Assembly (NCBI GenBank): GCA_035541455.1
Contig: DATKNH010000027.1
Span: forward strand, 1-58,988
Origin: Syntrophorhabdales bacterium
GTDB lineage: Bacteria > Desulfobacterota > Syntrophorhabdia > Syntrophorhabdales > WCHB1-27
DNA length: 58,988 nt
Reading direction: 5' to 3'
Shown: positions 19,323 to 30,537 of the stretch, one piece after another
Numbering within the stretch: position 1 is the first letter of the stretch
How the letters are laid out: the number at the start of each line of letters is the position of its first letter
Notes under the pieces: model-generated
Databases searched by the model: none
Seen by the model: only the letters and a program-made list of their open reading frames with translations
What the model was told of the DNA's origin: nothing
Made by a program: the position numbers and the translations under genes

Positions 19323-20210
19323 TTACCTTCTCGGGTGGGCTTTATCGTATACCTCCATGATCTTTTCCATGGAGATATGCGTATACTTCTGCGTTGTTGA
19401 AAGTTTCGAGTGGCCGAGGAGTTCCTGGATGCTCCTGAGATCGGCCCCCCCGCCCAGCATGTGTGTTGCAAAGGAATGGCGGATCCCATGGAGTGCAAGA
19501 TCCTTCAACAAACCTGCCCTGAGTTGATGTTTCTTCATGACCTTCAGCAACCCCCGGTAAGAAAGACGCATACCTTGCGCGTTCACAAACAGAGGGCCCT
19601 TGCCGGACGCGCTCACAGCCTCATGCCTCGCGTTCAAGTAAGCCTGTATCGCATCTCGCGCCTTTTCCCCGAAGGGAAGAATCCTCTCCTTGCCGCCCTT
19701 GCCTTTCACCAGTGCCCATAAACCGTCAAGATGCACGCTCCCCCTGTCCAGCCCGAGAGCCTCGCTTGCCCGCATGCCTGTGGAGTATATCAACTCGAAT
19801 ATCGCACGATTTCGGAGGGACAGCCAGGAGTCTGCCGGCAGCGCATCCAGAAAAAGAAACATCTCATCCACCGTGTAGAATTTCGGGAGATGCTTCTCGA
19901 CCCTCGGGTTCTTGACGAGCAGGGCCGGGTTATCATCGATGTATCCCTTCCTTTTGAGATACTTGAAATAGGACCGGATCGTTGCCACCTTTCGGGCTAG
20001 GGACGATTTCTTGAGTCCCTTATAAATGCTCACTATGTAGGCTCTGATGAGTCTATGATCTATCTGATCACCGGGACTCTTTGCCACGAAGGAGATGAAA
20101 CTCTCGAGATCCCCTTCATACGCTCTGATGGTATGAGGCGAAACGCCTTTCTCGGTAGCCAGGTACTCGTAAAAGTTTTCTTTGAGGCTTATAAAGGTTT
20201 CTTTATCCAT
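19323..20210 (-). CDS. xerC: Tyrosine recombinase XerC
   Basis: Site-specific recombinase of 295 residues that resolves chromosome dimers at dif with a XerD partner. The N-terminal core-binding (SAM-like) domain spans residues 7-95. The catalytic residues are visible: Arg in [11 protein letters not shown], His-x-x-Arg in [13 protein letters not shown], His in LLGHSKLS and the tyrosine in TTQKYTH near the end. xerC-hslV-hslU is a familiar order, which favours the housekeeping Xer role over an integrase. Confidence 0.92.
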
Positions 20211-20222
20211 TGTGAAACTACT

Positions 20223-20250
20223 ATTTTATAAACTTTTACCAAATAATCAA
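20223..20250 (-). promoter_or_regulatory. Promoter of the xerC-hslVU-arg run
   Basis: Read on the minus strand, TTGATT (20245-20250), a 16-base spacer and TAAAAT (20223-20228), 12 bases before the xerC start. It may drive the whole run down to lptE. Confidence 0.5.
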
Positions 20251-20389
20251 GTCGATTCCATGATTTTGTGTATCTTGAGCCAATTTAGTTCCCTCGAATA
20301 GCTACAAATTTCGGCCGCCAAGTACGTGATATTTGAACATCGTTCTCGGCTCAGGATCCACCCGCGAGAATCTGGCTGGCGACGACGGC

Positions 20390-20443
20390 CGGGTACCCGC
20401 AACTGGAAAGCGGTTGGGAGGGTAGAGGGGGACCGGGTACCCG
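20390..20443. repeat. Twin CGGGTACCCG palindromes
   Basis: The perfect 10-base palindrome CGGGTACCCG occurs at 20390-20399 and again at 20434-20443, 44 bases centre to centre, inside the gap between xerC and tRNA-His. Same-face spacing of about four helical turns would suit a dimeric DNA-binding protein. Confidence 0.5.
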
Positions 20444-20466
20444 CGTGCGGGTGTCCCATGGATCGA

Positions 20467-20495
20467 TTGACTTTTCCACACAGGTGTGATAAAAA
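20467..20495 (+). promoter_or_regulatory. Promoter of tRNA-His
   Basis: TTGACT at 20467-20472, a 17-base spacer and TAAAAA at 20490-20495, ten bases before the tRNA 5' end. Confidence 0.55.
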
Positions 20496-20505
20496 TCGGG
20501 CCAAC

Positions 20506-20583
20506 GGTGAGTGTAGCTCAGCTGGTTAGAGCACTGGGCTGTGGACCCAGGTGTCGAGGGTTCAAATCCCTTCACTCACCCCA
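20506..20583 (+). tRNA. tRNA-His (GTG anticodon)
   Basis: Full cloverleaf. The acceptor GTGAGTG pairs with CACTCAC, and an extra G at 20506 is available as the G(-1) that marks histidine tRNAs, opposite the discriminator C at 20580. The anticodon loop is TTGTGGA-like around GTG. The T loop is TTCAAAT. The CCA end is encoded (20581-20583). Confidence 0.97.
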
Positions 20584-20654
20584 CTCCACCAAGGTATCAG
20601 TAGCCTGTCGTCAGCGACGGAACAGGAAGCAACGATTCGGGAGAAACACAGCAG

Positions 20655-20831
20655 ATGGACAAAGCGAAACTCAGCGAAAAAATCAAAGCAGTAAGCAAGA
20701 AGGGAAAGATTTCCTGTAACCAGGCATTGAAACTGGCAGAAGAGGAAAAGGTTTCCTCACGAGAGCTTGGCAATCTGCTCAATGAGTTGAAGATAAAGGT
20801 GATGGGCTGCCAGTTGGGCTGCTTTCCTTAA
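20655..20831 (+). CDS. 58-residue CQLGCF winged-helix-like protein
   Basis: Short gene starting at ATG 20655, just after tRNA-His. It encodes about 58 residues, rich in Lys and Glu with predicted helices (ISCNQALKLAEEEKVSSRELGNLLNELKIKV) and ends in MGCQLGCFP. The helical pattern resembles a small winged-helix fold, and the Cys-x3-Cys tail suggests metal or iron-sulfur binding. From memory, similar short proteins with this CQLGCF ending occur in anaerobic Deltaproteobacteria, function unknown. It may be transcribed with the tRNA. Confidence 0.6.
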   Translation: MDKAKLSEKIKAVSKKGKISCNQALKLAEEEKVSSRELGNLLNELKIKVMGCQLGCFP

Positions 20832-20874
20832 GATAGGGCTGCGACAAGACAAATAAAGGCTTTTCTTTCTTGAG

Positions 20875-21462
20875 TCAGTACAGCCAGAACCTGTTGTGTG
20901 GTATCCCGCCCGTTGGCTTGCGTTGGGCAAGCTGTCTTTCGTAGATCGTCTTTGAATAGATGTAGAGTTCGCCCTGATAAGTGACTTCATTATAGTCGAG
21001 CGTCATAGCGCTCTGGTCGCCCACCCAGTAGTATCGTTCCACGCGCCAATCAGGTTTATGCCAGAATTCAAATCTTTCAAAGCACATGGCTTTCAGCGCT
21101 TCCCAATTTCCGAGGCCTTCGACGCCAAACACCAGAGAGGAGTAAATCCCTCTCCAGAACCCATACCGCACGTACGCGAGCTTCACATCACCCATTTGGA
21201 GTACGTCACCGTCATTCGCGTAGTAAAGCTCTGCAGGATTCCGCGGATCGTAGCTTGTCAACCTCATACCCTTCAACTCGCCCAGGTACTGTCCCCATCG
21301 AAGGCCATTGAACTGGCCAGGGTCATTCGGGAGGAAGTTCCCGCTGGAGCCAATAAGGCTCCACGCCGCGCACCCTGCAGCAGGTAAGAAAAAGACGGAT
21401 ATGGCCAGAACCGCGGCAATGATCGTAACAAGGCCCGTCCTGCGAGGTATCGTCGGCTTCAT
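20875..21462 (-). CDS. Lipoprotein of unknown function
   Basis: 195 residues with a lipoprotein signal: basic start KPTIPRR, hydrophobic stretch and PAAGC (Cys31). The mature part has WGQYLGELKGM, GDVLQMGDVKLAYVRYGFWRGIYSS and WEALKAMCFERFE, a compact domain with many aromatic residues. I do not assign a function. The layout (short signal, then one domain) suggests a periplasmic or outer-membrane-attached protein. The ribosome binding site is very strong (AGGAGGAGG). It is a single gene, transcribed opposite to tRNA-His and the CQLGCF gene. Confidence 0.7.
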   Translation of the reverse strand: MKPTIPRRTGLVTIIAAVLAISVFFLPAAGCAAWSLIGSSGNFLPNDPGQFNGLRWGQYLGELKGMRLTSYDPRNPAELYYANDGDVLQMGDVKLAYVRYGFWRGIYSSLVFGVEGLGNWEALKAMCFERFEFWHKPDWRVERYYWVGDQSAMTLDYNEVTYQGELYIYSKTIYERQLAQRKPTGGIPHNRFWLY

Positions 21463-21735
21463 GCTGTTCCTCCTCCTTCTGCGAGGCGGTTGTTGATGTC
21501 CCTGCCATCGTTGGCAAGCGAGCCTCTCATCTGCAGAAACGCGTCAGATCTTTAGCCTTCCCAGAAGAGACTACTCTGCTCACCCTGCAAACTTAGCAAT
21601 TATCGTTCCACAATTCGGGATCAGGAACCCCCTCCTTGCTTTTCGACATACCTTCCGATTTTCTTAAGCTCAGCGGGTGAACGAGACATATGCGATCATC
21701 CTCGTGTAAAGCTCTTCCTGTGAAGAGACCTTGAC
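21463..21735. other. Gap without a recognised gene
   Basis: Between the lipoprotein and the DUF35 gene. Only short unsupported frames are seen. It must hold the lipoprotein promoter, but no clear -35/-10 pair was found. Confidence 0.4.
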
Positions 21736-21772
21736 AAAAAAACAGGGGCCTGCCCAAATGGTCAGACCCCTG
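21736..21772 (-). terminator. Terminator of the ruvX-mltG-thiolase-DUF35 run
   Basis: On the minus strand CAGGGGTCTGACC pairs with GGCAGGCCCCTG and is followed by TTTTTTT (21742-21736). It is about 20 bases after the DUF35 stop. Confidence 0.85.
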
Positions 21773-21791
21773 CGCTGTTTGTGCCACAGAC

Positions 21792-22205
21792 TTACGCTTT
21801 TACTATCTCAAAGGTGATCTGGCCGTCATCATATTTGAGCGGGCGGGTGGTAACGGCCATGCCCACTTTCACGTCTTCCGGCTTTACATCCTTTGCAAGT
21901 CGGGCGAAAAGTTTCAGGCCGTCGCCGAAATCAACTACACCCATCGTGTACGGAGGATCTCCCTCGAAGCCGAACGGTGCATAGTAGGCGGTGGTGAAGG
22001 TTTCGAGCGTTCCTTTTTTGGGCATCTCGAACCACTCCATGTTCTTGGAAAAACATTTGGCGCAGTCCGCCCTCGGCGGAAAAAATTTCGCACCGCAATC
22101 TTTGCACAAAGTCCCTTCGATCTTTCCCTCACCGAGGAAGTCTACAAACTTTCCGGTTTTCGTCATAGCTGTAAAGCTTTTTCTTCCAAATTTTTCGAAT
22201 CCCAT
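21792..22205 (-). CDS. DUF35 zinc-ribbon/OB-fold protein, thiolase partner
   Basis: 137 residues. A rubredoxin-like zinc ribbon comes first (CKDCGAKFFPPRADCAKC, residues 37-54), then an OB-fold of about 80 residues. Such proteins bind CoA thioesters and form complexes with SCP2-type thiolases; the benzoylsuccinyl-CoA thiolase BbsAB and acetoacetyl-CoA systems of archaea are examples. It starts three bases after the thiolase gene stops, so they almost certainly form one complex. Confidence 0.88.
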   Translation of the reverse strand: MGFEKFGRKSFTAMTKTGKFVDFLGEGKIEGTLCKDCGAKFFPPRADCAKCFSKNMEWFEMPKKGTLETFTTAYYAPFGFEGDPPYTMGVVDFGDGLKLFARLAKDVKPEDVKVGMAVTTRPLKYDDGQITFEIVKA

Positions 22206-22208
22206 GGT

Positions 22209-23390
22209 TCACCTCCCGAATATTGTAACGTTTCCGTAAAGTCCAACGCCGCCCACATTGTGGACAAGGCCGATACCAGGGTCACCGGGTACCTGCATCG
22301 GACCCGCCTCGCCACGGAGTTGCAGCACAATGGTGCGCATCTGCGATCCGCCCGTTGCGCCGATAGGGTGGCCCTTCGAGAGGAGCCCGCCATCAACATT
22401 AACCGGTATCCTTCCGTCCTTATACGTGGCCTTTTCGCGAATGAGTTGCTTCCCCTCGCCCATTGGAGCAAAACCCAGACCCTCATAGGCCATGATTTCG
22501 GCAATGGTGAAACAGTCATGGACCTCTGCTACCTTCACCTCTTTTGCAGTAATGCCTGCCATGTTGTACGCCTGGGCAGCTGCGCCGTAGCCCACGCTGA
22601 GGCCTTTTGCGAAATCGGGCCGTGCAGCCATGTTCACCGCTTCAGATGCCGCACCGATGCCAATTATCCAGATGGGCTTCTTTGAAAAGGCTTTCGCTTT
22701 CTCCTTGTTGGCGAGAATCAAGCACGAGCTTCCATCCGCATTTGCACAGGCGTCCCCTACCCGCAACGGCCAGGCAACGGGTGCTGCCATCTTTGCTTCA
22801 GGATTAGAAGGGTTAAAGTCTTCGGCTTTCACGCCCTTGCGGTAGACGGCTCTTTCGTTGATAACGCCATAGCTCGCCGACTTCAGCCTGACATTCATCA
22901 GGTCGTCGTGTGTGAGTCCGTTTTTCGCCATGTACGCCTGGGCATAGAGGGCGTAGTAGGCTGGCATCATGGTGCCGAAAGGCGCCTCCCACTGAATGTC
23001 GGCGCCGCGTCCCATTCTCTCCTGGGACTCGGCTGACGTGATCTCAGACATTTTCTGAAACCCGAGCACGCACACGACATCGTGAAGACCCGATTTTATC
23101 ATGCTGTAGCCTACCTTCACACCCGCGCTGCTCGAGGAGCAGACGGTTTCGATGTAGAACGTTGGCTGCGGAATAAGACCGAGGTACTCCGCCAGCACGC
23201 CGGCTGGCGATCTCTGCTTGTCGTACTCCGGCGCTGAACAGAACACAGACGCCCCGACATCTTTCTGGGTAATGCCCGCATCCTTCATCGCCTCCCTGAA
23301 GGCCTCAAATGCCAACTCCCTGATCGATCCCTCATACCCCCTCACAAAAAAACTCTGGCCTACACCAATCACTGCTACCTCTTTTTCCAT
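22209..23390 (-). CDS. SCP2-type thiolase family protein
   Basis: Thiolase-fold enzyme of 393 residues. The nucleophilic cysteine is in IETVCSSSSAGVKVG near residue 88, the catalytic histidine pair in EVHDCFTIAEIMAYE and GGLLSKGHPIGATGG. It lacks the C-terminal CxG of classical thiolases, which fits the SCP-x / DUF35-partner class. The probable reaction is thiolytic cleavage (or condensation) of a beta-ketoacyl-CoA. Close to the aromatic cluster, an arylated or alicyclic ketoacyl-CoA is possible, which is inference. Confidence 0.85.
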   Translation of the reverse strand: MEKEVAVIGVGQSFFVRGYEGSIRELAFEAFREAMKDAGITQKDVGASVFCSAPEYDKQRSPAGVLAEYLGLIPQPTFYIETVCSSSSAGVKVGYSMIKSGLHDVVCVLGFQKMSEITSAESQERMGRGADIQWEAPFGTMMPAYYALYAQAYMAKNGLTHDDLMNVRLKSASYGVINERAVYRKGVKAEDFNPSNPEAKMAAPVAWPLRVGDACANADGSSCLILANKEKAKAFSKKPIWIIGIGAASEAVNMAARPDFAKGLSVGYGAAAQAYNMAGITAKEVKVAEVHDCFTIAEIMAYEGLGFAPMGEGKQLIREKATYKDGRIPVNVDGGLLSKGHPIGATGGSQMRTIVLQLRGEAGPMQVPGDPGIGLVHNVGGVGLYGNVTIFGR

Positions 23391-23409
23391 AGAATCGCCT
23401 CCTTGTTGC

Positions 23410-24414
23410 TTATGGTTTCTTCTTCTTATTCTTTTGGTACATGGTCACGAATTGATTGTGCTGGCTGATCTGCCTTGAGAAGACGTGGGTTCCATCATTT
23501 CTTGACACAAAGTAGAGCGCGTCGGTGGGCGCCGGGTAAAGCACTGCCATCAGGGAGCTCGTGGACGGGTTACATATCGGCCCTTTTGGCAAACCCCTGA
23601 GCCTGTATGTATTGTACGCGGTCGGCTTCTCAAGGTCAGCCCTTGTCAGCGCTTTGGGCGTCATCCCGATACCGTACATGACCGTCGGGTCAGAATCGAG
23701 ACTCATGCCTTCCCGAAGCCGATTGTGGAAGACGGCAGAAATCATAGGTTTTTCAGGCTCAATCTTCGCCTCTTTCTCGATCATGGAAGCTAGAATCACA
23801 ACGTCGCCGGGGGTCATGCGGAACTCGGCCATCCGCGCTCTCACATCCTCCCTCTCAAAGAAAACAAAGGTTCTTCGCACAATTCTTTCGAGGAAAGCGT
23901 CTACATCCGTTTCCTTGCTATAGAAATAGGTGTCCGGCGCAAGATAGCCTTCGAGGCTGTCGCCCGGAATGGTAAGCTTGTTCAAGAATGCAGTATCTGT
24001 GGCCAGCCGGAAAAAAGCATCTTTCTTCATGATACCTGCCTTTTCCATGGCCTCTCCAACGCCGTTAAGATTGTAGCCCTCCACAAGCGTGAGCGTGTAA
24101 ATTTTCCTCTGCCCTGCTGCCATCTTTGCTGCTATCTGAGCGATGGACATCTGCGTGCTCAATTCATATTCACCCGCTATGATCTTGCCTTTATGCATCA
24201 CGTATGAGCAGGCCAAGAAAAGCCACTCCGAGCGAATCAGGCCCTCTTCTTCCAGGAGATTTGCCACTTCCTTAAGATGCGTACCTCTCTTGATAACAAC
24301 TGATTTGACGTTCCTTTTCGTATCCCGAGGGATGCTGGCAAAGATCACCGGCTGGCTCACCAGAAGGAGCGCAACCGCTGCGGCAATGATCCTCTTATCC
24401 CTTTTTGTGAGCAT
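23410..24414 (-). CDS. mltG: Endolytic murein transglycosylase MltG
   Basis: Inner-membrane transglycosylase that cuts nascent glycan strands and ends peptidoglycan chain growth. 334 residues with an N-terminal membrane helix (IIAAAVALLLVSQPVIFA). A LysM-like part follows, and the YceG domain holds the catalytic glutamate in ILASMIEKEAKIEPEKPMISAVFHNRL near residue 213. YNTYRLRGLPKGPICNPS is the conserved end. It overlaps ruvX by 20 bases. Confidence 0.94.
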   Translation of the reverse strand: MLTKRDKRIIAAAVALLLVSQPVIFASIPRDTKRNVKSVVIKRGTHLKEVANLLEEEGLIRSEWLFLACSYVMHKGKIIAGEYELSTQMSIAQIAAKMAAGQRKIYTLTLVEGYNLNGVGEAMEKAGIMKKDAFFRLATDTAFLNKLTIPGDSLEGYLAPDTYFYSKETDVDAFLERIVRRTFVFFEREDVRARMAEFRMTPGDVVILASMIEKEAKIEPEKPMISAVFHNRLREGMSLDSDPTVMYGIGMTPKALTRADLEKPTAYNTYRLRGLPKGPICNPSTSSLMAVLYPAPTDALYFVSRNDGTHVFSRQISQHNQFVTMYQKNKKKKP

Positions 24415-24826
24415 CGAGAAATCCCTGAAGGATAATTTGCGCCGCCATCATATCTATGTAGGGTTTGCGTTTCTTGTGTTTGTACTCATGCATGTCAAAG
24501 ATGCGGTGAGCTTCATCTGTTGAGAATCGCTCATCCCACAGATCGACGGGCACGTGCGTCTTCTCTTCTATCTTTCTGGCAAACTCGACGATCGCTTCTG
24601 CTTTCTTCCCGATCGAGCCGTCCAGGTTCTTGGGAAGGCCGCACACGATCCGGGATACGTCGTACTCTCTTACCAATTTCTTCACCTCATCGATGTCCTG
24701 TGCCAGCGATCCTCGCTGATACAGCTTGAGAGGCTGGGCTATGCTGGCTTGAGAGTCTGAAATGGCAATGCCTATCCGTTTTTCTCCGACGTCAAGGGAG
24801 AGCGTGCGCACGGCACAGAATATCAT
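24395..24826 (-). CDS. ruvX: RuvX/YqgF Holliday-junction resolvase-like protein
   Basis: Putative pre-16S rRNA nuclease (YqgF), RNase H fold, 143 residues from ATG 24826. LSLDVGEKRIGIAISD carries the first acidic residue, VCGLPKNLDG and VDLWDERFST the next, and DMMAAQIILQGFLD the last aspartate. A longer frame from 24871 has no homologous extension. The GTG at 24811 is another possible start. ruvX-mltG is a common pair. Confidence 0.9.
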   Translation of the reverse strand: MIFCAVRTLSLDVGEKRIGIAISDSQASIAQPLKLYQRGSLAQDIDEVKKLVREYDVSRIVCGLPKNLDGSIGKKAEAIVEFARKIEEKTHVPVDLWDERFSTDEAHRIFDMHEYKHKKRKPYIDMMAAQIILQGFLDAHKKG

Positions 24827-25031
24827 GGCGGCTGTCGCCTGTTCAAGAACAAAAAGACGCAGACGCTCCAAGAAAACCTGGGTGCAGGATCACTGACCAG
24901 CCCGAATGAAACTCTATCATTGTCCTGCTTGCTGCATATCGTCGCGACAACCACTCCCTTTCGGACAACGTCTCTTAATCTCTTGTCTCACATACGCGTC
25001 CGGCTTCACAAGCGAAGAACCCTTAAATATC

Positions 25032-25090
25032 GGTCCTTTTTAGGCTATTTTTGTCTTGACATCGTTTTGCGTTGCGGATAAAATAGGACC
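25032..25090. promoter_or_regulatory. Inverted hexamers flanking the ring-cleavage promoter
   Basis: GGTCCTTTTTA at 25032-25042 and, inverted, TAAAATAGGACC at 25079-25090. They sit just upstream of the -35 box and at the expected transcription start, 53 bases apart centre to centre, about five helical turns. They look like paired operator halves. The regulator is unknown. Confidence 0.45.
25056..25084 (+). promoter_or_regulatory. Strong sigma-70 promoter of the aromatic-ring cluster
   Basis: Perfect TTGACA at 25056-25061, a 17-base spacer and TAAAAT at 25079-25084, about 43 bases before the SDR start codon. It is the best promoter match in the window. Confidence 0.85.
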
Positions 25091-25126
25091 AAATTGTAAT
25101 AATTTTCACAAAATCGCAAGGAGACT

Positions 25127-25885
25127 ATGCCCATGAAACTAGAAGGCAAGAACGCGGTGGTTACAGGGGGAGGACGGGGCGTGGGCAGGGCGATTTGCCT
25201 GGACTTCGCTAAGCAGGGCGCGAACGTTGTGGTCAATTACGCCTCCAACGACAAGGCAGCCAAGGAAGTTGTGGGTATGATTGAGGGGATGGGGCGGAAA
25301 GCGGTCGCAGTCCAGGGCGATGTCGCCAGAAAGGAGGATGCACAGAAAATCATTGAAACTTGCGTACAGAGCTTTGGCTCGGTTCATATCCTCGTGAATA
25401 ACGCAGGAGTTTCAAAGCCGTCCATGCTCCACAAAATGTCAGTGGAGACATGGGATGAGGTGGTTAACATTCAGATGAGAGGGCCGTGGCTCTGCATCCA
25501 GGCAGCATCCAAGTATTTCATGGAACAGAATTACGGCCGGATTATAAACGTGACATCCGTAGCCGGCGTTGTGGGAACCATAGGTCAGATTAACTACGCG
25601 GCTGCAAAGGGAGGCGTAATCTCCTTGACCAAGTCTGCTGCAAGAGAACTGGCAAAGTTCAACGTCACCTGCAATGTCATATCGCTTGGAATTGTCACCA
25701 CTGAAATGACCCACACGATATCTACCGACGAAAAATTGAAAGAGATTTACACGCGACGGATTTTGCTGGGTCGTTATGCTGAGCCGGAAGATGTATCGCC
25801 AGCCTTTACCTTCTTTGCCTCTGACGATGCCCGCTACATCACCGGTCAACTCCTGTGCGTTGACGGCGGTTACGGCATGACGTAA
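25127..25885 (+). CDS. Short-chain dehydrogenase/reductase of the aromatic cluster
   Basis: SDR-fold NAD(P) oxidoreductase of 252 residues. The cofactor motif is TGGGRGVGRAI near residue 13, then NNAG (NNAGVS). The catalytic serine is in VTSVAG near 142, with Tyr-x3-Lys in NYAAAKGG. The C-terminus has the usual SDR end, GQLLCVDGGYGM. It looks like FabG-type 3-oxoacyl reductases. As the first gene behind the strong promoter, it may oxidise a hydroxyacyl-CoA after ring opening, which is inference. ATG at 25127 is only 3 bases from AAGGAG; ATG at 25133 has better spacing (9) and may be used. Confidence 0.88.
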   Translation: MPMKLEGKNAVVTGGGRGVGRAICLDFAKQGANVVVNYASNDKAAKEVVGMIEGMGRKAVAVQGDVARKEDAQKIIETCVQSFGSVHILVNNAGVSKPSMLHKMSVETWDEVVNIQMRGPWLCIQAASKYFMEQNYGRIINVTSVAGVVGTIGQINYAAAKGGVISLTKSAARELAKFNVTCNVISLGIVTTEMTHTISTDEKLKEIYTRRILLGRYAEPEDVSPAFTFFASDDARYITGQLLCVDGGYGMT

Positions 25886-25951
25886 GAACCCGAAGAAGGC
25901 GAGTAGGAGATCAGAAGTCCCAATCACACATTTTAAGAAGGAGGTGTTTCA

Positions 25952-27061
25952 ATGGCTGATGTACCGACGACAATAAAGACGTGGCAGATGAAGACGCCAT
26001 GGGGTAAGAACAAGGAGACCGGAGAGGTCATACAGGGGAAGCTCGAACAGACAGAGATACCTGTGCCGCCCCTGAAAGAGGGTGATGTCCTCGTTCAGGT
26101 TGCAGGATGCGGCGTTTGCCATACAGACCTCGGCTATTTCTATGACGGTGTTCCGACGGTGAGCAAGCCCCCGCTGACGCTGGGCCATGAGATCGCGGGG
26201 ACTGTGGTCGCAGGCGATGCAGCCTGGATCGGCAAAGAGGTGATCGTTCCTGCCGTCATGCCCTGCCGCAAATGCGCTCTTTGCAAGACGGGTCGCGGCA
26301 ACCGTTGCCTTGCGCAGTTGATGCCGGGTAATTCTCTGGGTATTTACGGCGGCTTCTCCAGCCACATTCCGGTTCCCGCAATCGATCTGTGCCTGGTACA
26401 GGATAAGAAAGGTTACGCCCTGGAACAGCTGGCCGTAATTGCGGATGCAGTTACCACTCCATATCAGGCGGCGAAACGAGCAGACCTTCAGCCGGGCGAC
26501 AACGTGATCGTCATCGGCGCCACCGGCGGCGTGGGCGTGTACGTGGCGCAGACCTTGAGAGCGCTGGGCGCAAAGTCTGTGATCGGTATTGCGAGAAATC
26601 CTGACAAACTGAAGAGGGCCCTGGAGTACGGCTGCGACGCCGTTATCAGCACCGTCGACAAGACAAACAAAGATGTCGTCGGCGAATGGAGAAACTATTG
26701 CAAAGCGAAGGGCGTGCCCAATACCGGTTGGAAGATTTTCGAAGTTACCGGTACTAAAGCCGGACAGGATCTCGCACTTGATCTGCTCTCCTTCGTGGGG
26801 AAACTGATCCTCGTTGGCTTCGGCATGGCCAAGAGCGAGTATATGATGTCCAAGCTGATGGCCTTTGATGCTGAGATCATAGGGACGTGGGGCTGTCTGC
26901 CTGAATATTACCCGATCGTCCTTGACATGGTTCTGAACAAGAAGATCGTGATCGACCCGTTCGTCGAAGTGAGACCGATGAGCACGATCGCGGCAACATT
27001 CGACGAGATACACAAGGCAGGATCACCTGCAAAAAGAGTTGTGTTGAAGCCAGACTTTTAA
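25952..27061 (+). CDS. had: 6-hydroxycyclohex-1-ene-1-carbonyl-CoA dehydrogenase
   Basis: Zinc alcohol-dehydrogenase-family enzyme, 369 residues, close to Had (BamQ) of anaerobic benzoate degraders. It oxidises 6-hydroxycyclohex-1-ene-1-carbonyl-CoA to the 6-oxo compound with NAD. Catalytic zinc residues are in GCGVCHTDLG and GHEIAG; the structural four-cysteine zinc loop is CRKCALCKTGRGNRC; the Rossmann motif is GATGGVGVYVAQ. The next gene acts on its product, which supports the specific call. A strong GGAGG precedes the ATG. Confidence 0.92.
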   Translation: MADVPTTIKTWQMKTPWGKNKETGEVIQGKLEQTEIPVPPLKEGDVLVQVAGCGVCHTDLGYFYDGVPTVSKPPLTLGHEIAGTVVAGDAAWIGKEVIVPAVMPCRKCALCKTGRGNRCLAQLMPGNSLGIYGGFSSHIPVPAIDLCLVQDKKGYALEQLAVIADAVTTPYQAAKRADLQPGDNVIVIGATGGVGVYVAQTLRALGAKSVIGIARNPDKLKRALEYGCDAVISTVDKTNKDVVGEWRNYCKAKGVPNTGWKIFEVTGTKAGQDLALDLLSFVGKLILVGFGMAKSEYMMSKLMAFDAEIIGTWGCLPEYYPIVLDMVLNKKIVIDPFVEVRPMSTIAATFDEIHKAGSPAKRVVLKPDF

Positions 27062-27093
27062 GGTTGAAACAATAAACTATCAGGAGGAGAACT

Positions 27094-28242
27094 ATGGGAC
27101 TTGAATGGATGCCAAGAGAGCACGGAAAGAAAAACCATGATCGTTATGGCACAGAGCACTGGGGGACAGAGGCACCCTGTGTCGTGTACGAGAAGAGACC
27201 ACTAACGGATCCCAAAGGAAACGTGGTAAAGGGGCTTTACGTTTCGTGGATCAGACTCAACAACCCCAACCAGTACAACTCTTACACAACGGAGATGGTG
27301 AAAGGCGTCATCGCTGGTTTTGAGAACTCTTCAACAGACCGCGAAGTCGTCGCAACGGTCTTCACAGGCACAGGCCCGAACGCCTTCTGCACGGGCGGCA
27401 ACACCAAAGAGTATTCCGAGTATTACAGCATGAGGCCTGAAGAGTATGGTTCCTACATGGAACTCTTCAATAACATGGTCGACTCGATCCTCATGTGCAA
27501 AAAGCCGGTCATCTGCCGGGTTAACGGTATGAGGGTTGCGGGCGGCCAGGAAATCGGCACTGCATGCGACCTGACAATCACCTCAGATCTTGCGATTTTC
27601 GGCCAGGCGGGTCCGCGCCATGGCTCTGCCCCGGTCGGCGGCGCATCCGATTTTCTGCCTTCCTATCTCAGCATCGAGGATGCGATGTGGAGCTGCGTGA
27701 GCTGCGAGATGTGGAGTGCGTACAAGATGGCGTGGAAAGGTCTGCTGACAAAAGTTCTGCCGGTTCTGAAAGACGAAAAGGGCGCCTGGGTACGAAACCC
27801 GCAGGTGATCACCGACAAGTTCATCGACAACGGCGAGATCGTGTACGGCGAAAACAAGTCCGGTGATGCGTTCAAACAGGCAAGAGCCTGGGTGAACGAC
27901 AAACTGAAGAATAACGACTATGACTTTGCCCTCCTCGATGCGGAAGTCAATCGCATCGTCTGGATTTTCGCCAACCTCTTCCCCGGCTGTCTCGCAAAAT
28001 CCATCGACGGTATCAGACAGAAGAAGAAATTCTTCTGGGATACAATGAAGAACGATCACCGTCACTGGCTGGCCGCCAACATGATGGGCGAGGCGTATCT
28101 TGGGTTCGGCGCATTCAACTCGAAGAAGATCACCGGCGTCGACACCATCGACTTCATCAAGTACCGTCAGCTGGTTGCCGAGGGAACACTGGTGGATACC
28201 AAGTTCATGGAAGACGTACTGGGCAAACCACAGGGCAAGTAG
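27094..28242 (+). CDS. bamA: 6-oxocyclohex-1-ene-1-carbonyl-CoA hydrolase (ring opening)
   Basis: Crotonase-fold hydrolase of 382 residues that adds water twice and opens the alicyclic ring to 3-hydroxypimelyl-CoA, the diagnostic enzyme of anaerobic benzoyl-CoA degradation (BamA/Oah). The length and the long C-terminal part with KSGDAFKQARAWVNDK and FWDTMKNDHRHWLAANMMGEAYLGFGAFN are typical; ordinary crotonases are about 260 residues. The oxyanion-hole regions are FCTGGN and VAGGQEIGTACDLTI. It follows had by 32 bases. The gene is widely used as a marker for aromatic degraders. Confidence 0.95.
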   Translation: MGLEWMPREHGKKNHDRYGTEHWGTEAPCVVYEKRPLTDPKGNVVKGLYVSWIRLNNPNQYNSYTTEMVKGVIAGFENSSTDREVVATVFTGTGPNAFCTGGNTKEYSEYYSMRPEEYGSYMELFNNMVDSILMCKKPVICRVNGMRVAGGQEIGTACDLTITSDLAIFGQAGPRHGSAPVGGASDFLPSYLSIEDAMWSCVSCEMWSAYKMAWKGLLTKVLPVLKDEKGAWVRNPQVITDKFIDNGEIVYGENKSGDAFKQARAWVNDKLKNNDYDFALLDAEVNRIVWIFANLFPGCLAKSIDGIRQKKKFFWDTMKNDHRHWLAANMMGEAYLGFGAFNSKKITGVDTIDFIKYRQLVAEGTLVDTKFMEDVLGKPQGK

Positions 28243-28259
28243 CGCTTTTGCACGAACAC

Positions 28260-28287
28260 GAAAAAGGGGGCCTAGGCCCCCTTTTTC
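28260..28287 (+). terminator. Bidirectional terminator after bamA
   Basis: A 28-base perfect palindrome: AAAAAGGGGGC, loop CTAG, GCCCCCTTTTT. It ends with a T-run on both strands. It stands 18 bases after the bamA stop and separates bamA from dch. Confidence 0.9.
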
Positions 28288-28389
28288 TTTCAGTTCGCCT
28301 GATGAAATGAGAATGTAGCTTTGAAAAAGGAAAATGTGGTAAATGAGAGTAACAGATTCCTTCCAGTCGCAGAAAAGCTGTTAGCCTCT

Positions 28390-28557
28390 GATTACGATTT
28401 GCATTCAAAATGCAGAGCAAGGCGGCAGCGAGGAGTGTTTTAGCCGGGCACCCGTGGGCAACATCTTTCCGGCGAACACAAACAACCAAAACCACGGGTG
28501 GCAGAGAAGTGCGACGCAGCGACAACGAAGGTATATGCTTCAAGGCAAATCGGTATC
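28390..28557. repeat. Palindromic intergenic element, copy D
   Basis: Left arm 28390-28406 (GATTACGATTTGCATTC) and right arm 28537-28557 (inverted, GATACCGATTTGCCTTG) are imperfect complements. Inside are GGCGGCAGCGAGGA (28421-28434), the inner hairpin ACCCGTGG (28450-28457) with CCACGGGT (28492-28499), and GCGACGCAGCGACAACGAAGG (28511-28531). The right arm ends 5 bases before the dch ribosome binding site. 28291-28389 holds nothing recognised. It is the same kind as copy C. Confidence 0.85.
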
Positions 28558-28574
28558 CCAAAGGAGGAAAGATA

Positions 28575-29345
28575 ATGGCCTACCAACTCATTAATTACGA
28601 AAAGAAAGACAAGGTTGCCCGCATCACGCTCAACGTACCACCGCTCAACTGGATAACGATTCCCATGATTAAAGAGATCATCGACGCAGTTAAAGATGCA
28701 GGCAAGGACGAGACGCTCAAGCTGCTCATTTTCGACCACGCAGGCGAGAAAGCTTTTTCCAGTGGCGTCGATGTCGCGGATCATACCGAGGATAAAGTGG
28801 ATGAAATGATCAAGACGTTCCACCAGATGTTCAGGGTCATGTACGAGATCGACATTCCTATCGTCGGACTCGTGAATGGCGTTTCCTTGGGCGGCGGCTG
28901 CGAGCTTACAAGCTTCTGCGACATCGTGCTGGCATCAGACCGCTCAAGACTTGGCCAGCCTGAGATTGCAGTCGGCGTTTTCCCGCCGGTTGCCGCTGCG
29001 TGGTTCAGCAAGATAATCGGCCTCAAGAAAACCTACGAGCTCATCCTCACCGGCAAAATGATTGGCGCACAGGAAGCAAAAGAGATCGGGCTCGTCAACG
29101 CAGTCTTCCCTGCCGCATCGTTCAGGGAAGATGTTGACAAATTCCTCGCCGAACTGTTGAACAAGAGCAGACCGATTCTCGTCTGGAGCAAACGTGCAAT
29201 CAGGGCAAGCCTCGGTGCCAACTTCCCGGATAGCCTGCGTACAGCAGAAGTGCTCTACCTCGACGGGTGCATGAAGGCGGAAGACGCGAAGGAAGGTATC
29301 GCAGCCTTCATGGGAAAAAGGAAAGCGGTGTGGAAGGACAAGTAA
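28575..29345 (+). CDS. dch: Cyclohexa-1,5-diene-1-carbonyl-CoA hydratase
   Basis: Crotonase-family hydratase of 256 residues adding water to the first dienoyl-CoA product of benzoyl-CoA reduction (Dch/BamR). It supplies the substrate of had. Features are FDHAGEKAFSSGVDVADH, GVSLGGGCELTSFCDIVLASDRSRLGQPEI and AAWFSKIIGLKKTYELILTGK. The ATG at 28575 is chosen because AAGGAGG precedes it; an earlier in-frame start at 28410 would translate the palindromic element. The benzoyl-CoA reductase itself (bamB-I or bcr) is not in this window. Confidence 0.92.
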   Translation: MAYQLINYEKKDKVARITLNVPPLNWITIPMIKEIIDAVKDAGKDETLKLLIFDHAGEKAFSSGVDVADHTEDKVDEMIKTFHQMFRVMYEIDIPIVGLVNGVSLGGGCELTSFCDIVLASDRSRLGQPEIAVGVFPPVAAAWFSKIIGLKKTYELILTGKMIGAQEAKEIGLVNAVFPAASFREDVDKFLAELLNKSRPILVWSKRAIRASLGANFPDSLRTAEVLYLDGCMKAEDAKEGIAAFMGKRKAVWKDK

Positions 29346-29352
29346 GCCAGGA

Positions 29353-30537
29353 ATGAGACATCGGATACAGCACACGCCTGAGACAGAGATTCAGTCCCGG
29401 CTGAAACGATTACAGCCATTGCTGGAGAAGGCCTCGCTTGACGGGGCCTTTTTCCACTACAAGATCGACTACTTCTATCTCTCGGGAACTATGCAGGACG
29501 CCTTTCTCTACGTGCGGCCTGCCGAAGAACCGATTCTCTTCGTGCGGAGGGAGCTGGAGCGGGCGCGAAGAGAGTCCCCACTGAAAACGATCGTTCCGAT
29601 CAAGACCTTCAAGGACATCAAACCATTCATCGGCCGCATGAAGCGGGTCGGTCTGCAGCTCGACGTTATTCCCTACACTATGGTGCTCAAATTTAAAGAA
29701 ATCCTTGGAGACGTCACGCTCTTCGATTCCTCGCCGCTCACGCAGCAGCTCAGAAAATATAAATCACCTTTTGAAATCAGTGTTCTGGAACATGCAGCGG
29801 CCATCAGCAACAAGGTCTACGACGAGATACCAAATTTTCTGAAAGAAGGCTTGCGCGAAATAGAGCTGGGAGGCATGCTGGAGAACTACGCCAAATCCCT
29901 TGGCCATGAAGGGCTCCTCAGAGTCCGATCCCTCAATTACGAGGCGTACACGTGGCACATCCTCAGCGGACGGACCGGCAGTATTGTAAGCCAGTCAGAC
30001 TCGCCCATGGGTGGATTAGGGCTGTCTCCCGCTTTTCCTGTCGGCGCAAGCATGAAGAAGATGAAACGGGGTGAGCCTATTCTCGTGGACTTTGGCATCT
30101 CGTACCACGGCTACCATGTAGACCAGACCCGCATGTACGCCATAGGCTGCATGCCTGATCTCTTCGTGAAGGCGTGCGAGGTCTGCCGTGACATCCAGTA
30201 CAAGGTGCTGGACAAGGCGCTCCAGGGCATGCGCACTGCCGATCTCTTCGCGTACTCGAAACAGCTCGCGGAAGATGCGGGCTTCGGAGAGAATTATCTT
30301 GGCTACGGCCATCACAAAGTAAACTTTCTCGCCCACGGCATCGGCCTTGAGCTCGCTGAGTTCCCCTTCATCGCAAGAACTCACGATTACCCGCTGGAGC
30401 CCGGTATGACATTGGCCATCGAGCCTAAAATGGTCTTCCCAAAGATAGGCTCGTGCGGCATTGAGAATACAGTGCTTCTTGAACATGGCAGCTTTCGGAT
30501 ACTGACCAACAGAGATGAGCAGATCACCGTTCTATGA
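29353..30537 (+). CDS. M24 family metallopeptidase (Xaa-Pro type)
   Basis: 394 residues in two parts: an N-terminal creatinase-like domain to about residue 135 and the C-terminal pita-bread M24 domain. Possible metal ligands are Asp in VDFGISYHGYHVDQTRM, His in HKVNFLAHGIGLELAEFP, Glu in IEPKMVFP and a last Glu in IENTVLL. The cluster position, seven bases after dch and before a TIM-barrel gene, may be chance. It differs from the second M24 gene at 34372, which is closer to classical PepP/PepQ. Confidence 0.8.
   Translation: MRHRIQHTPETEIQSRLKRLQPLLEKASLDGAFFHYKIDYFYLSGTMQDAFLYVRPAEEPILFVRRELERARRESPLKTIVPIKTFKDIKPFIGRMKRVGLQLDVIPYTMVLKFKEILGDVTLFDSSPLTQQLRKYKSPFEISVLEHAAAISNKVYDEIPNFLKEGLREIELGGMLENYAKSLGHEGLLRVRSLNYEAYTWHILSGRTGSIVSQSDSPMGGLGLSPAFPVGASMKKMKRGEPILVDFGISYHGYHVDQTRMYAIGCMPDLFVKACEVCRDIQYKVLDKALQGMRTADLFAYSKQLAEDAGFGENYLGYGHHKVNFLAHGIGLELAEFPFIARTHDYPLEPGMTLAIEPKMVFPKIGSCGIENTVLLEHGSFRILTNRDEQITVL

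What the first reader, a model, noticed from the sequence alone, without database searches (positions are those of the whole stretch)
25032..25090. Paired operator-like hexamers around a consensus promoter of the aromatic cluster
TTGACA-N17-TAAAAT is nearly ideal, flanked by GGTCCT(T/A)TTTA in inverted orientation, 53 bases apart. Strong promoters of catabolic genes usually need a repressor, and the symmetry suggests one that binds two sites.
Basis: partly seen in the sequence, partly recalled or inferred. Interest (0 to 1): 0.55.

Follow-up and report, generated by a model that had tools for sequence, protein, structure and literature searches.

The report
Redox-type operator at an aromatic-degradation promoter
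The paired hexamers that were flagged look like chance, but just beside them lies a conserved switch, most likely bound by the redox sensor Rex, that would tie breakdown of aromatic rings in syntrophic bacteria to the cell's NADH level.

Summary
The promoter is real (TTGACA 25056-25061, N17, TAAAAT 25079-25084) and so are the hexamers (GGTCCT 25032-25037, AGGACC 25085-25090). The hexamer pair is chance-level in the window and genome, and only the window's own genome has both hexamers exactly, of 41 genomes of the order with the orthologous operon.

Something else at the promoter is conserved. The 18-bp near-palindrome TTGTAATAATTTTCACAA (25094-25111) starts 9 bases after the -10 box, and its TTTCACA core is in all 41 orthologous promoters. 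The same element abuts the -10 box of gcdA (glutaconyl-CoA decarboxylase) in 29 of 29 promoters, in the opposite orientation, and lies upstream of a glutaryl-CoA-dehydrogenase-like gene in 30 of 30. It also recurs at acs, nuoA and other energy genes. It fits the published Rex consensus TTGTGAANNNNTTCACAA; a Rex gene is in 45 of 46 genomes of the order.

Best reading: Rex, sensing NADH/NAD+, represses the SDR-had-oah operon and the rest of the route from benzoyl-CoA to acetate. The operator is well supported; Rex as its binder is inferred, with a CRP/FNR-type protein (HcpR-like) as main rival.

The parts
25056..25061 (+). -35 box TTGACA, preceded by the conserved TTTTTGTC (25048-25055)
   Evidence: TTTTTRTC-TTGACA widespread in the order
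25079..25084 (+). -10 box TAAAAT (17-bp spacer)
25094..25111 (+). conserved near-palindromic operator TTGTAATAATTTTCACAA (Rex-type), starts 9 bases after the end of the -10 box
   Evidence: best operator-profile hit of the window, 24.6 against 11.5 for the next (this site was in the training set)
25032..25037 (+). left hexamer GGTCCT of the finding; not conserved, chance-level
25085..25090 (-). right hexamer of the finding (AGGACC on +), between -10 box and likely start site; not conserved
25133..25885 (+). SDR-family dehydrogenase, first gene of the operon; ATG at 25133 is likelier than 25127 (GGAG at 25120-25123; relatives begin there)
25952..27061 (+). had: 6-hydroxycyclohex-1-ene-1-carbonyl-CoA dehydrogenase
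   Evidence: TIGR03201 455.6 bits (cut-off 338.65)
27094..28242 (+). oah/bamA: 6-oxocyclohex-1-ene-1-carbonyl-CoA hydrolase
   Evidence: TIGR03200 535.1 bits (cut-off 464.45)
28260..28287 (+). intrinsic-terminator-like hairpin closing the operon

Best explanation
The strong sigma-70-type promoter of the SDR-had-oah operon is controlled by an 18-bp near-palindromic operator at 25094-25111 that covers the start of the transcript. The binder is most likely Rex, the NADH-sensing repressor encoded elsewhere in this genome (G000:C62). When NADH/NAD+ is low Rex would sit there and block initiation or escape of RNA polymerase; when NADH rises Rex lets go. The same operator stands at the promoters of following steps (a glutaryl-CoA-dehydrogenase-like gene, gcdA, a thiolase, acs) and of electron-transport genes, in the own genome or in relatives, so one redox signal would set the route from the dearomatised ring to acetate. 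SHOWN: the element, its position, its conservation, its recurrence at other genes of the route, the presence of Rex. INFERRED: that a protein binds it, that the protein is Rex, that binding represses, and the physiological sense. The GGTCCT hexamers play no part.
For: (1) The TTTCACA core lies within 110 bp upstream of the SDR gene in 41 of 41 order loci and the element moves as a unit while its distance to the -10 box varies. (2) An own-genome search with the window's element finds one other near-match, C110:467-484, at the gcdA promoter; gcdA identity: best solved matches are glutaconyl-CoA decarboxylase A, 635.8 and 631.3 bits, next 137.4. (3) 29 of 29 gcdA promoters with upstream DNA carry TTGTGAAAATAATTACAA with at most 3 mismatches, abutting the -10 box, with the strong half-site on the other side: a DNA dimer site, not a 5'UTR RNA element. 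(4) 30 of 30 promoters of the glutaryl-CoA-dehydrogenase-like gene have a site within 2 mismatches of TTGTKAANNNNTTMACAA, reversed control 2 of 30; nuoA 15 of 30, control 0 of 30. (5) Published Rex consensus TTGTGAANNNNTTCACAA (PMC6391272, PMC3441419, PMC5317091, passages). (6) Rex domain in 45 of 46 order genomes; own Rex exceeds several NCBIfam Rex cut-offs, reaches 148.7 bits to solved Rex and keeps QVRKD..YFG. (7) Rex-form sites: order 299 against 88 control; outside the order, Rex-bearing genomes 102 against 51, Rex-less 94 against 75.
Against: No binding data. CRP/FNR-family proteins, whose HcpR form has the near-identical consensus TTGTGANNNNNNTCACAA (PMC545781 passages), occur in 46 of 46 order genomes. 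The conserved site upstream of rex itself is different, TTGWTAAAWWTTTCTCTT-like, in 22 of 23 rex1 loci. In most f3 genomes the left half of the SDR site is weak (TTATAA). G003 keeps the SDR site but shows no Rex (genome 84% complete). In the own genome sites with up to 2 mismatches are only 33 against 23 control, the nuoA site is absent (L390) and no close orthologue of the glutaryl-CoA-dehydrogenase-like gene was found (best 34%). The Rex-bearing against Rex-less contrast outside the order is weak (one-sided p = 0.029).
Confidence: 0.74

Rival explanations
1. The operator is bound by a CRP/FNR-family regulator of the HcpR kind, whose published site TTGTGANNNNNNTCACAA differs from the Rex site only in two central positions.
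For: CRP/FNR-type HTH in 46 of 46 order genomes; the HcpR consensus in Desulfovibrio fits, and a site overlapping the -10 box of sat was first assigned to HcpR (PMC545781 passages).
Against: The extra positions of the Rex form are kept: TTT before CACA in the SDR set, AAA after TTGTG in the gcdA set. The genes found are acyl-CoA oxidation, NADH dehydrogenase and acs, whereas hcp orthologues, the most conserved HcpR targets in that paper, were not among the sites examined here (hcp was not searched for). The sat gene whose site was first called HcpR is now reported as repressed by Rex (PMC7531388 passages).
Confidence: 0.14
2. The operator belongs to an unidentified repressor (for example TetR- or MarR-like) that senses an acyl-CoA intermediate.
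For: In other orders the same operon has an unrelated repeated element (GTAACTATAATGTAGTTAC type) at the same place, so lineage-specific dedicated regulators probably exist.
Against: The recurrence at nuoA and acs promoters points to a global rather than a substrate-specific signal.
Confidence: 0.1
3. The paired GGTCCT hexamers are the operator of a repressor that bridges two sites across the promoter.
For: Hexamers present, 53 bp apart, about five helical turns.
Against: Both exact in 1 of 41 order loci, the window itself; changed in the same-genus genome; chance-level in window, genome and local shuffles.
Confidence: 0.02

Closest known systems
Rex operators (published consensus TTGTGAANNNNTTCACAA; Rex represses at low NADH/NAD+)
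   Same: 18-bp palindromic form, position at or just after the -10 box, energy-metabolism targets, Rex gene present in the genome
   Different: the targets include the benzoyl-CoA pathway (had, oah, gcdA, a glutaryl-CoA-dehydrogenase-like gene); each SDR and gcdA site has one good and one weaker half; the rex gene itself has a variant site
sat promoter of Desulfovibrio vulgaris (site TTGTaAAtTtTTTCACAA in PMC545781; Rex represses sat in PMC7531388)
   Same: near-identical operator overlapping the promoter of an energy-metabolism gene in another anaerobe
   Different: sulfate activation, not aromatic-ring catabolism
HcpR regulon (CRP/FNR family, TTGTGANNNNNNTCACAA)
   Same: outer twelve positions of the site
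   Different: core target hcp was not met among the sites examined; central positions conserved here are free in the HcpR consensus
Effector-specific regulators of anaerobic aromatic pathways (BzdR, BadR, MbdR; search listing only; BamVW recalled)
   Same: control the same or related pathways
   Different: as listed or recalled they respond to aromatic or alicyclic acids or their CoA esters; here the proposed signal is NADH/NAD+

Membership tests
Rex operator / Rex regulon | site fits TTGTGAANNNNTTCACAA | tested here: met
   window site 2 mismatches and gcdA site 1 mismatch from TTGTKAANNNNTTMACAA; 30 of 30 glutaryl-CoA-dehydrogenase-like promoters within 2 mismatches
Rex operator / Rex regulon | a genuine Rex protein in the genome | tested here: met
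   L172 ORF 2092-2769 over several NCBIfam Rex cut-offs; Put_DNA-bind_N plus CoA_binding domains; 45 of 46 order genomes
Rex operator / Rex regulon | site placed to repress (overlaps or follows the -10 box) | tested here: met
Rex operator / Rex regulon | autoregulation through the same motif upstream of rex | tested here: inconclusive
   22 of 23 rex1 loci carry a variant, TTGWTAAAWWTTTCTCTT-like; 0 of 5 rex2 loci
Rex operator / Rex regulon | energy and redox genes share the site | tested here: met
   nuoA 15 of 30, reversed control 0 of 30; acs, Fe-S oxidoreductase and others by inspection
Rex operator / Rex regulon | NADH-sensitive binding in vitro | not testable with these tools
   needs purified protein
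HcpR (CRP/FNR) regulon | site fits TTGTGANNNNNNTCACAA | tested here: met
   same sites; the two consensuses overlap
HcpR (CRP/FNR) regulon | hcp under control | not tested
   hcp was not searched for
HcpR (CRP/FNR) regulon | CRP/FNR regulator in the genome | tested here: met
   CRP/FNR-type HTH in 46 of 46 order genomes; whether any is HcpR was not tested

The most novel reading that the evidence does not exclude
In the Syntrophorhabdales a single NADH/NAD+ sensor, Rex, governs aromatic-ring catabolism from the dearomatised ring to acetate together with NADH disposal. The pathway would then be tuned to the redox back-pressure of the syntrophic partnership rather than, or on top of, an aromatic inducer, and could be switched on at high NADH to run backwards as an electron sink.
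Probability: 0.35. Interest if true: 0.65.

Novelty: new member of a known kind. Interest (0 to 1): 0.42.

Why it matters
Syntrophic aromatic degraders live close to thermodynamic equilibrium, where NADH reoxidation limits growth, and how they regulate ring degradation is little known (from general knowledge). An operator that ties the benzoyl-CoA lower pathway to a redox sensor gives a simple, testable control logic for a whole order of mostly uncultured bacteria. The searches made here found no paper that joins Rex to benzoyl-CoA catabolism in this group; the library is open-access only, and the three papers listed were seen as listing only.

Tried and rejected
Hexamers as operator: rejected. 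The only other exact GGTCCTTTTTA in the genome, C60:174-184, is one arm of an inverted pair (to 203, 8 bp apart) ending in T-runs, like an intrinsic terminator, not a promoter site (judged by eye from the coordinates and letters). A 5'UTR RNA element for TTTTCACAA: rejected because gcdA has the element inverted and abutting the -10 box. Rex called from presence alone: not enough, since CRP/FNR proteins are also universal; hence the comparison of Rex-bearing and Rex-less genomes, which supports Rex only weakly. Own-genome sites: of 18 inspected, about half fall inside genes, so only acs, the MEIGREIF gene, an MFS transporter and gcdA are used. The MFS site (L243) lies inside a spurious-looking 83-aa reverse ORF in that script. 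The MEIGREIF gene in the own genome rests on its first few residues at a contig end and likeness to L230. Literature searches gave nothing.

Full report
WHAT WAS CLAIMED AND WHAT IS THERE. The window has TTGACA at 25056-25061, a 17-bp spacer and TAAAAT at 25079-25084, the best of 12 promoter-like sites in 20000-30000. GGTCCT is at 25032-25037 and AGGACC at 25085-25090, 53 bp centre to centre. The A/T part of the right copy is the -10 box itself read backwards, so the symmetry beyond the hexamer is partly that of the promoter. The operon behind it is an SDR dehydrogenase (likely start 25133), had (TIGR03201 over cut-off) and oah/bamA (TIGR03200 over cut-off), closed by a strong terminator-like hairpin at 28260-28287. 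The following crotonase-like gene (ORF 28410-29345) is outside that unit and reaches only 140.9 bits for the dienoyl-CoA hydratase model (cut-off 292.5).

THE HEXAMERS ARE NOT SPECIAL. The 11-mer is at chance frequency in the window (24 against 19.9; 20 of 100 shuffles reach 24) and rarer than its reversed control in the genome (61 against 181). Local shuffles give an exact G+C-rich inverted hexamer pair in 147 of 1000 and an 11-bp inverted pair with up to 2 mismatches in 224 of 500. I took upstream DNA of the SDR orthologue from 41 genomes of the order (L001-L030; 11 loci; L085 repeats L025 and was dropped). Only the window's own locus has both hexamers exactly. The same-genus locus, syntenic through ruvX and mltG, reads GGTCTT and AGCACA.

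WHAT IS CONSERVED. All 41 loci share a TTGACA-type promoter (L030 reads TTGACT), most with TTTTTRTC before it, and beyond the -10 box an element with TTTCACA; consensus about TTATAAAAWTTTTCACAA, in the window TTGTAATAATTTTCACAA at 25094-25111. My column counts were anchored on TTCACA, so six of the invariant columns are invariant by construction; that all 41 of 41 have the word within 110 bp is not. The gap from the -10 box to the element varies (9 bases in the window, mostly 7 elsewhere, up to 19 in G003), while the element stays intact. Of 11 loci from other orders none has TTCACA in the last 110 bp. In a second set with record titles (80 loci, of which 67 had a usable SDR start, 11 had no SDR and 2 no start) 23 have a site scoring 18 or more, largely the same genomes as above; the other 44 score 15.3 or less. 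Record titles of the 23 include Syntrophorhabdus sp. PtaB.Bin027, PtaB.Bin184 and PtaU1.Bin058 and a Syntrophorhabdales bacterium, hence the order name.

A SECOND AND A THIRD PROMOTER WITH THE SAME ELEMENT. Searching the own genome with the window's element gives one other hit with at most one mismatch, C110:467-484. It lies at TATAATTGTGAAAATAATAACAA, upstream of a protein whose nearest solved relatives are glutaconyl-CoA decarboxylase A, which acts on the product of glutaryl-CoA oxidation in the same pathway. In relatives 30 gcdA loci were fetched; one (L118) is cut; the other 29 all have TTGTGAAAATAATTACAA with at most 3 mismatches, starting on the last base of the -10 box. The well-kept half is upstream here and downstream at the SDR promoter, as expected of a site for a dimer in DNA. 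A pattern search over 46 genomes gave 477 places against 132 for the reversed pattern, more than control in 45 of 46. Fetched examples lie at an acyl-CoA dehydrogenase nearest to glutaryl-CoA dehydrogenase Acd (417.7 bits, cut-off 470), acs, nuoA, thiolase, a 3-hydroxyacyl-CoA dehydrogenase, an Fe-S (HdrC-like) protein and a HATPase gene. Two were then counted on the fetched loci: the acyl-CoA dehydrogenase 30 of 30 (reversed control 2 of 30), nuoA 15 of 30 (control 0 of 30), the latter mostly in one genus. In the own genome acs (L090), an Fe-S oxidoreductase-like gene (L244) and an MFS transporter (L243) have sites; nuoA does not.

WHO BINDS. The published Rex consensus is TTGTGAANNNNTTCACAA (passages of PMC6391272, PMC3441419 and PMC5317091) and TTGTTAANNNNTTAACAA in clostridia (PMC9600882 passages). 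Rex represses at low NADH/NAD+ (PMC5317091 passage). A very similar site at Desulfovibrio sat was first given to the CRP/FNR protein HcpR (PMC545781 passages), and sat was later reported as repressed by Rex (PMC7531388 passages). Rex is in 45 of 46 order genomes, and the own protein is a full Rex with a conserved recognition-helix region. CRP/FNR proteins are in 46 of 46, so presence does not decide. Rex-form sites exceed control outside the order in Rex-bearing genomes (33 genomes, 102 against 51) more than in Rex-less ones (40 genomes, 94 against 75), one-sided rank test p = 0.029: supportive, weak. Against: the rex1 promoters carry a related but different site, TTGWTAAAWWTTTCTCTT-like, in 22 of 23 loci and none of 5 rex2 loci; in the own genome two copies, 63 bp apart, flank a possible rex promoter. 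This may be the autoregulatory variant or a second regulator's site.

HOW IT WOULD WORK. At the SDR promoter the operator would span about +3 to +21 if transcription starts near 25091 (inferred), and at gcdA it abuts the -10 box; both positions suit repression, not activation. Rex off DNA at high NADH would then raise had/oah, glutaryl-CoA oxidation, gcdA, thiolase and acs, and, in some genomes, NADH dehydrogenase. In Syntrophus, AMP-forming acs makes ATP from acetyl-CoA (PMC4992975 title, start of abstract and passages), so acs fits the catabolic direction. Syntrophus is also reported to make cyclohexane carboxylate and benzoate from crotonate (title in the reference list of PMC4992975), so derepression at high NADH could instead serve the reverse direction as an electron sink. 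The sequences do not tell these apart.

VERDICT. The flagged hexamers are a chance feature. The real feature is a lineage-wide operator just downstream, most likely for Rex: a known kind of switch on a pathway for which I found no such report (open-access library only).

Noticed in passing
L172 1940-2110 (G000:C62), and rex1 loci of relatives: rex1 promoters carry a TTGWTAAAWWTTTCTCTT-like site in 22 of 23 loci, sometimes twice and about 62-63 bp apart; in the own genome the two copies flank a possible promoter (TTGCTC-N17-TAGAAT). rex2 loci lack it (0 of 5).
   Followed up: partly
L077, L082-L084, L307, L310, L313, L320, L323, L326, L329, L331, L343, L344 upstream of SDR: In other orders the SDR gene has an unrelated, often tandem element of the form GTAACTATAATGTAGTTAC just after the -10 box, suggesting a different dedicated regulator of the same operon.
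   Followed up: no
window 25127-25135: The SDR start is probably ATG 25133, not 25127: spacing to GGAG is better and relatives align from there; the same-genus genome has GTG at the upstream position.
   Followed up: partly
G000:C60:174-203: Inverted GGTCCTTTTT pair 8 bp apart, looks like an intrinsic terminator; it holds the only other exact GGTCCTTTTTA in the genome.
   Followed up: no
L062 (G042), upstream of SDR: A second TTTTTTTCACAATC element lies about 35 bp upstream of the SDR promoter's -35 box in this genome.
   Followed up: no
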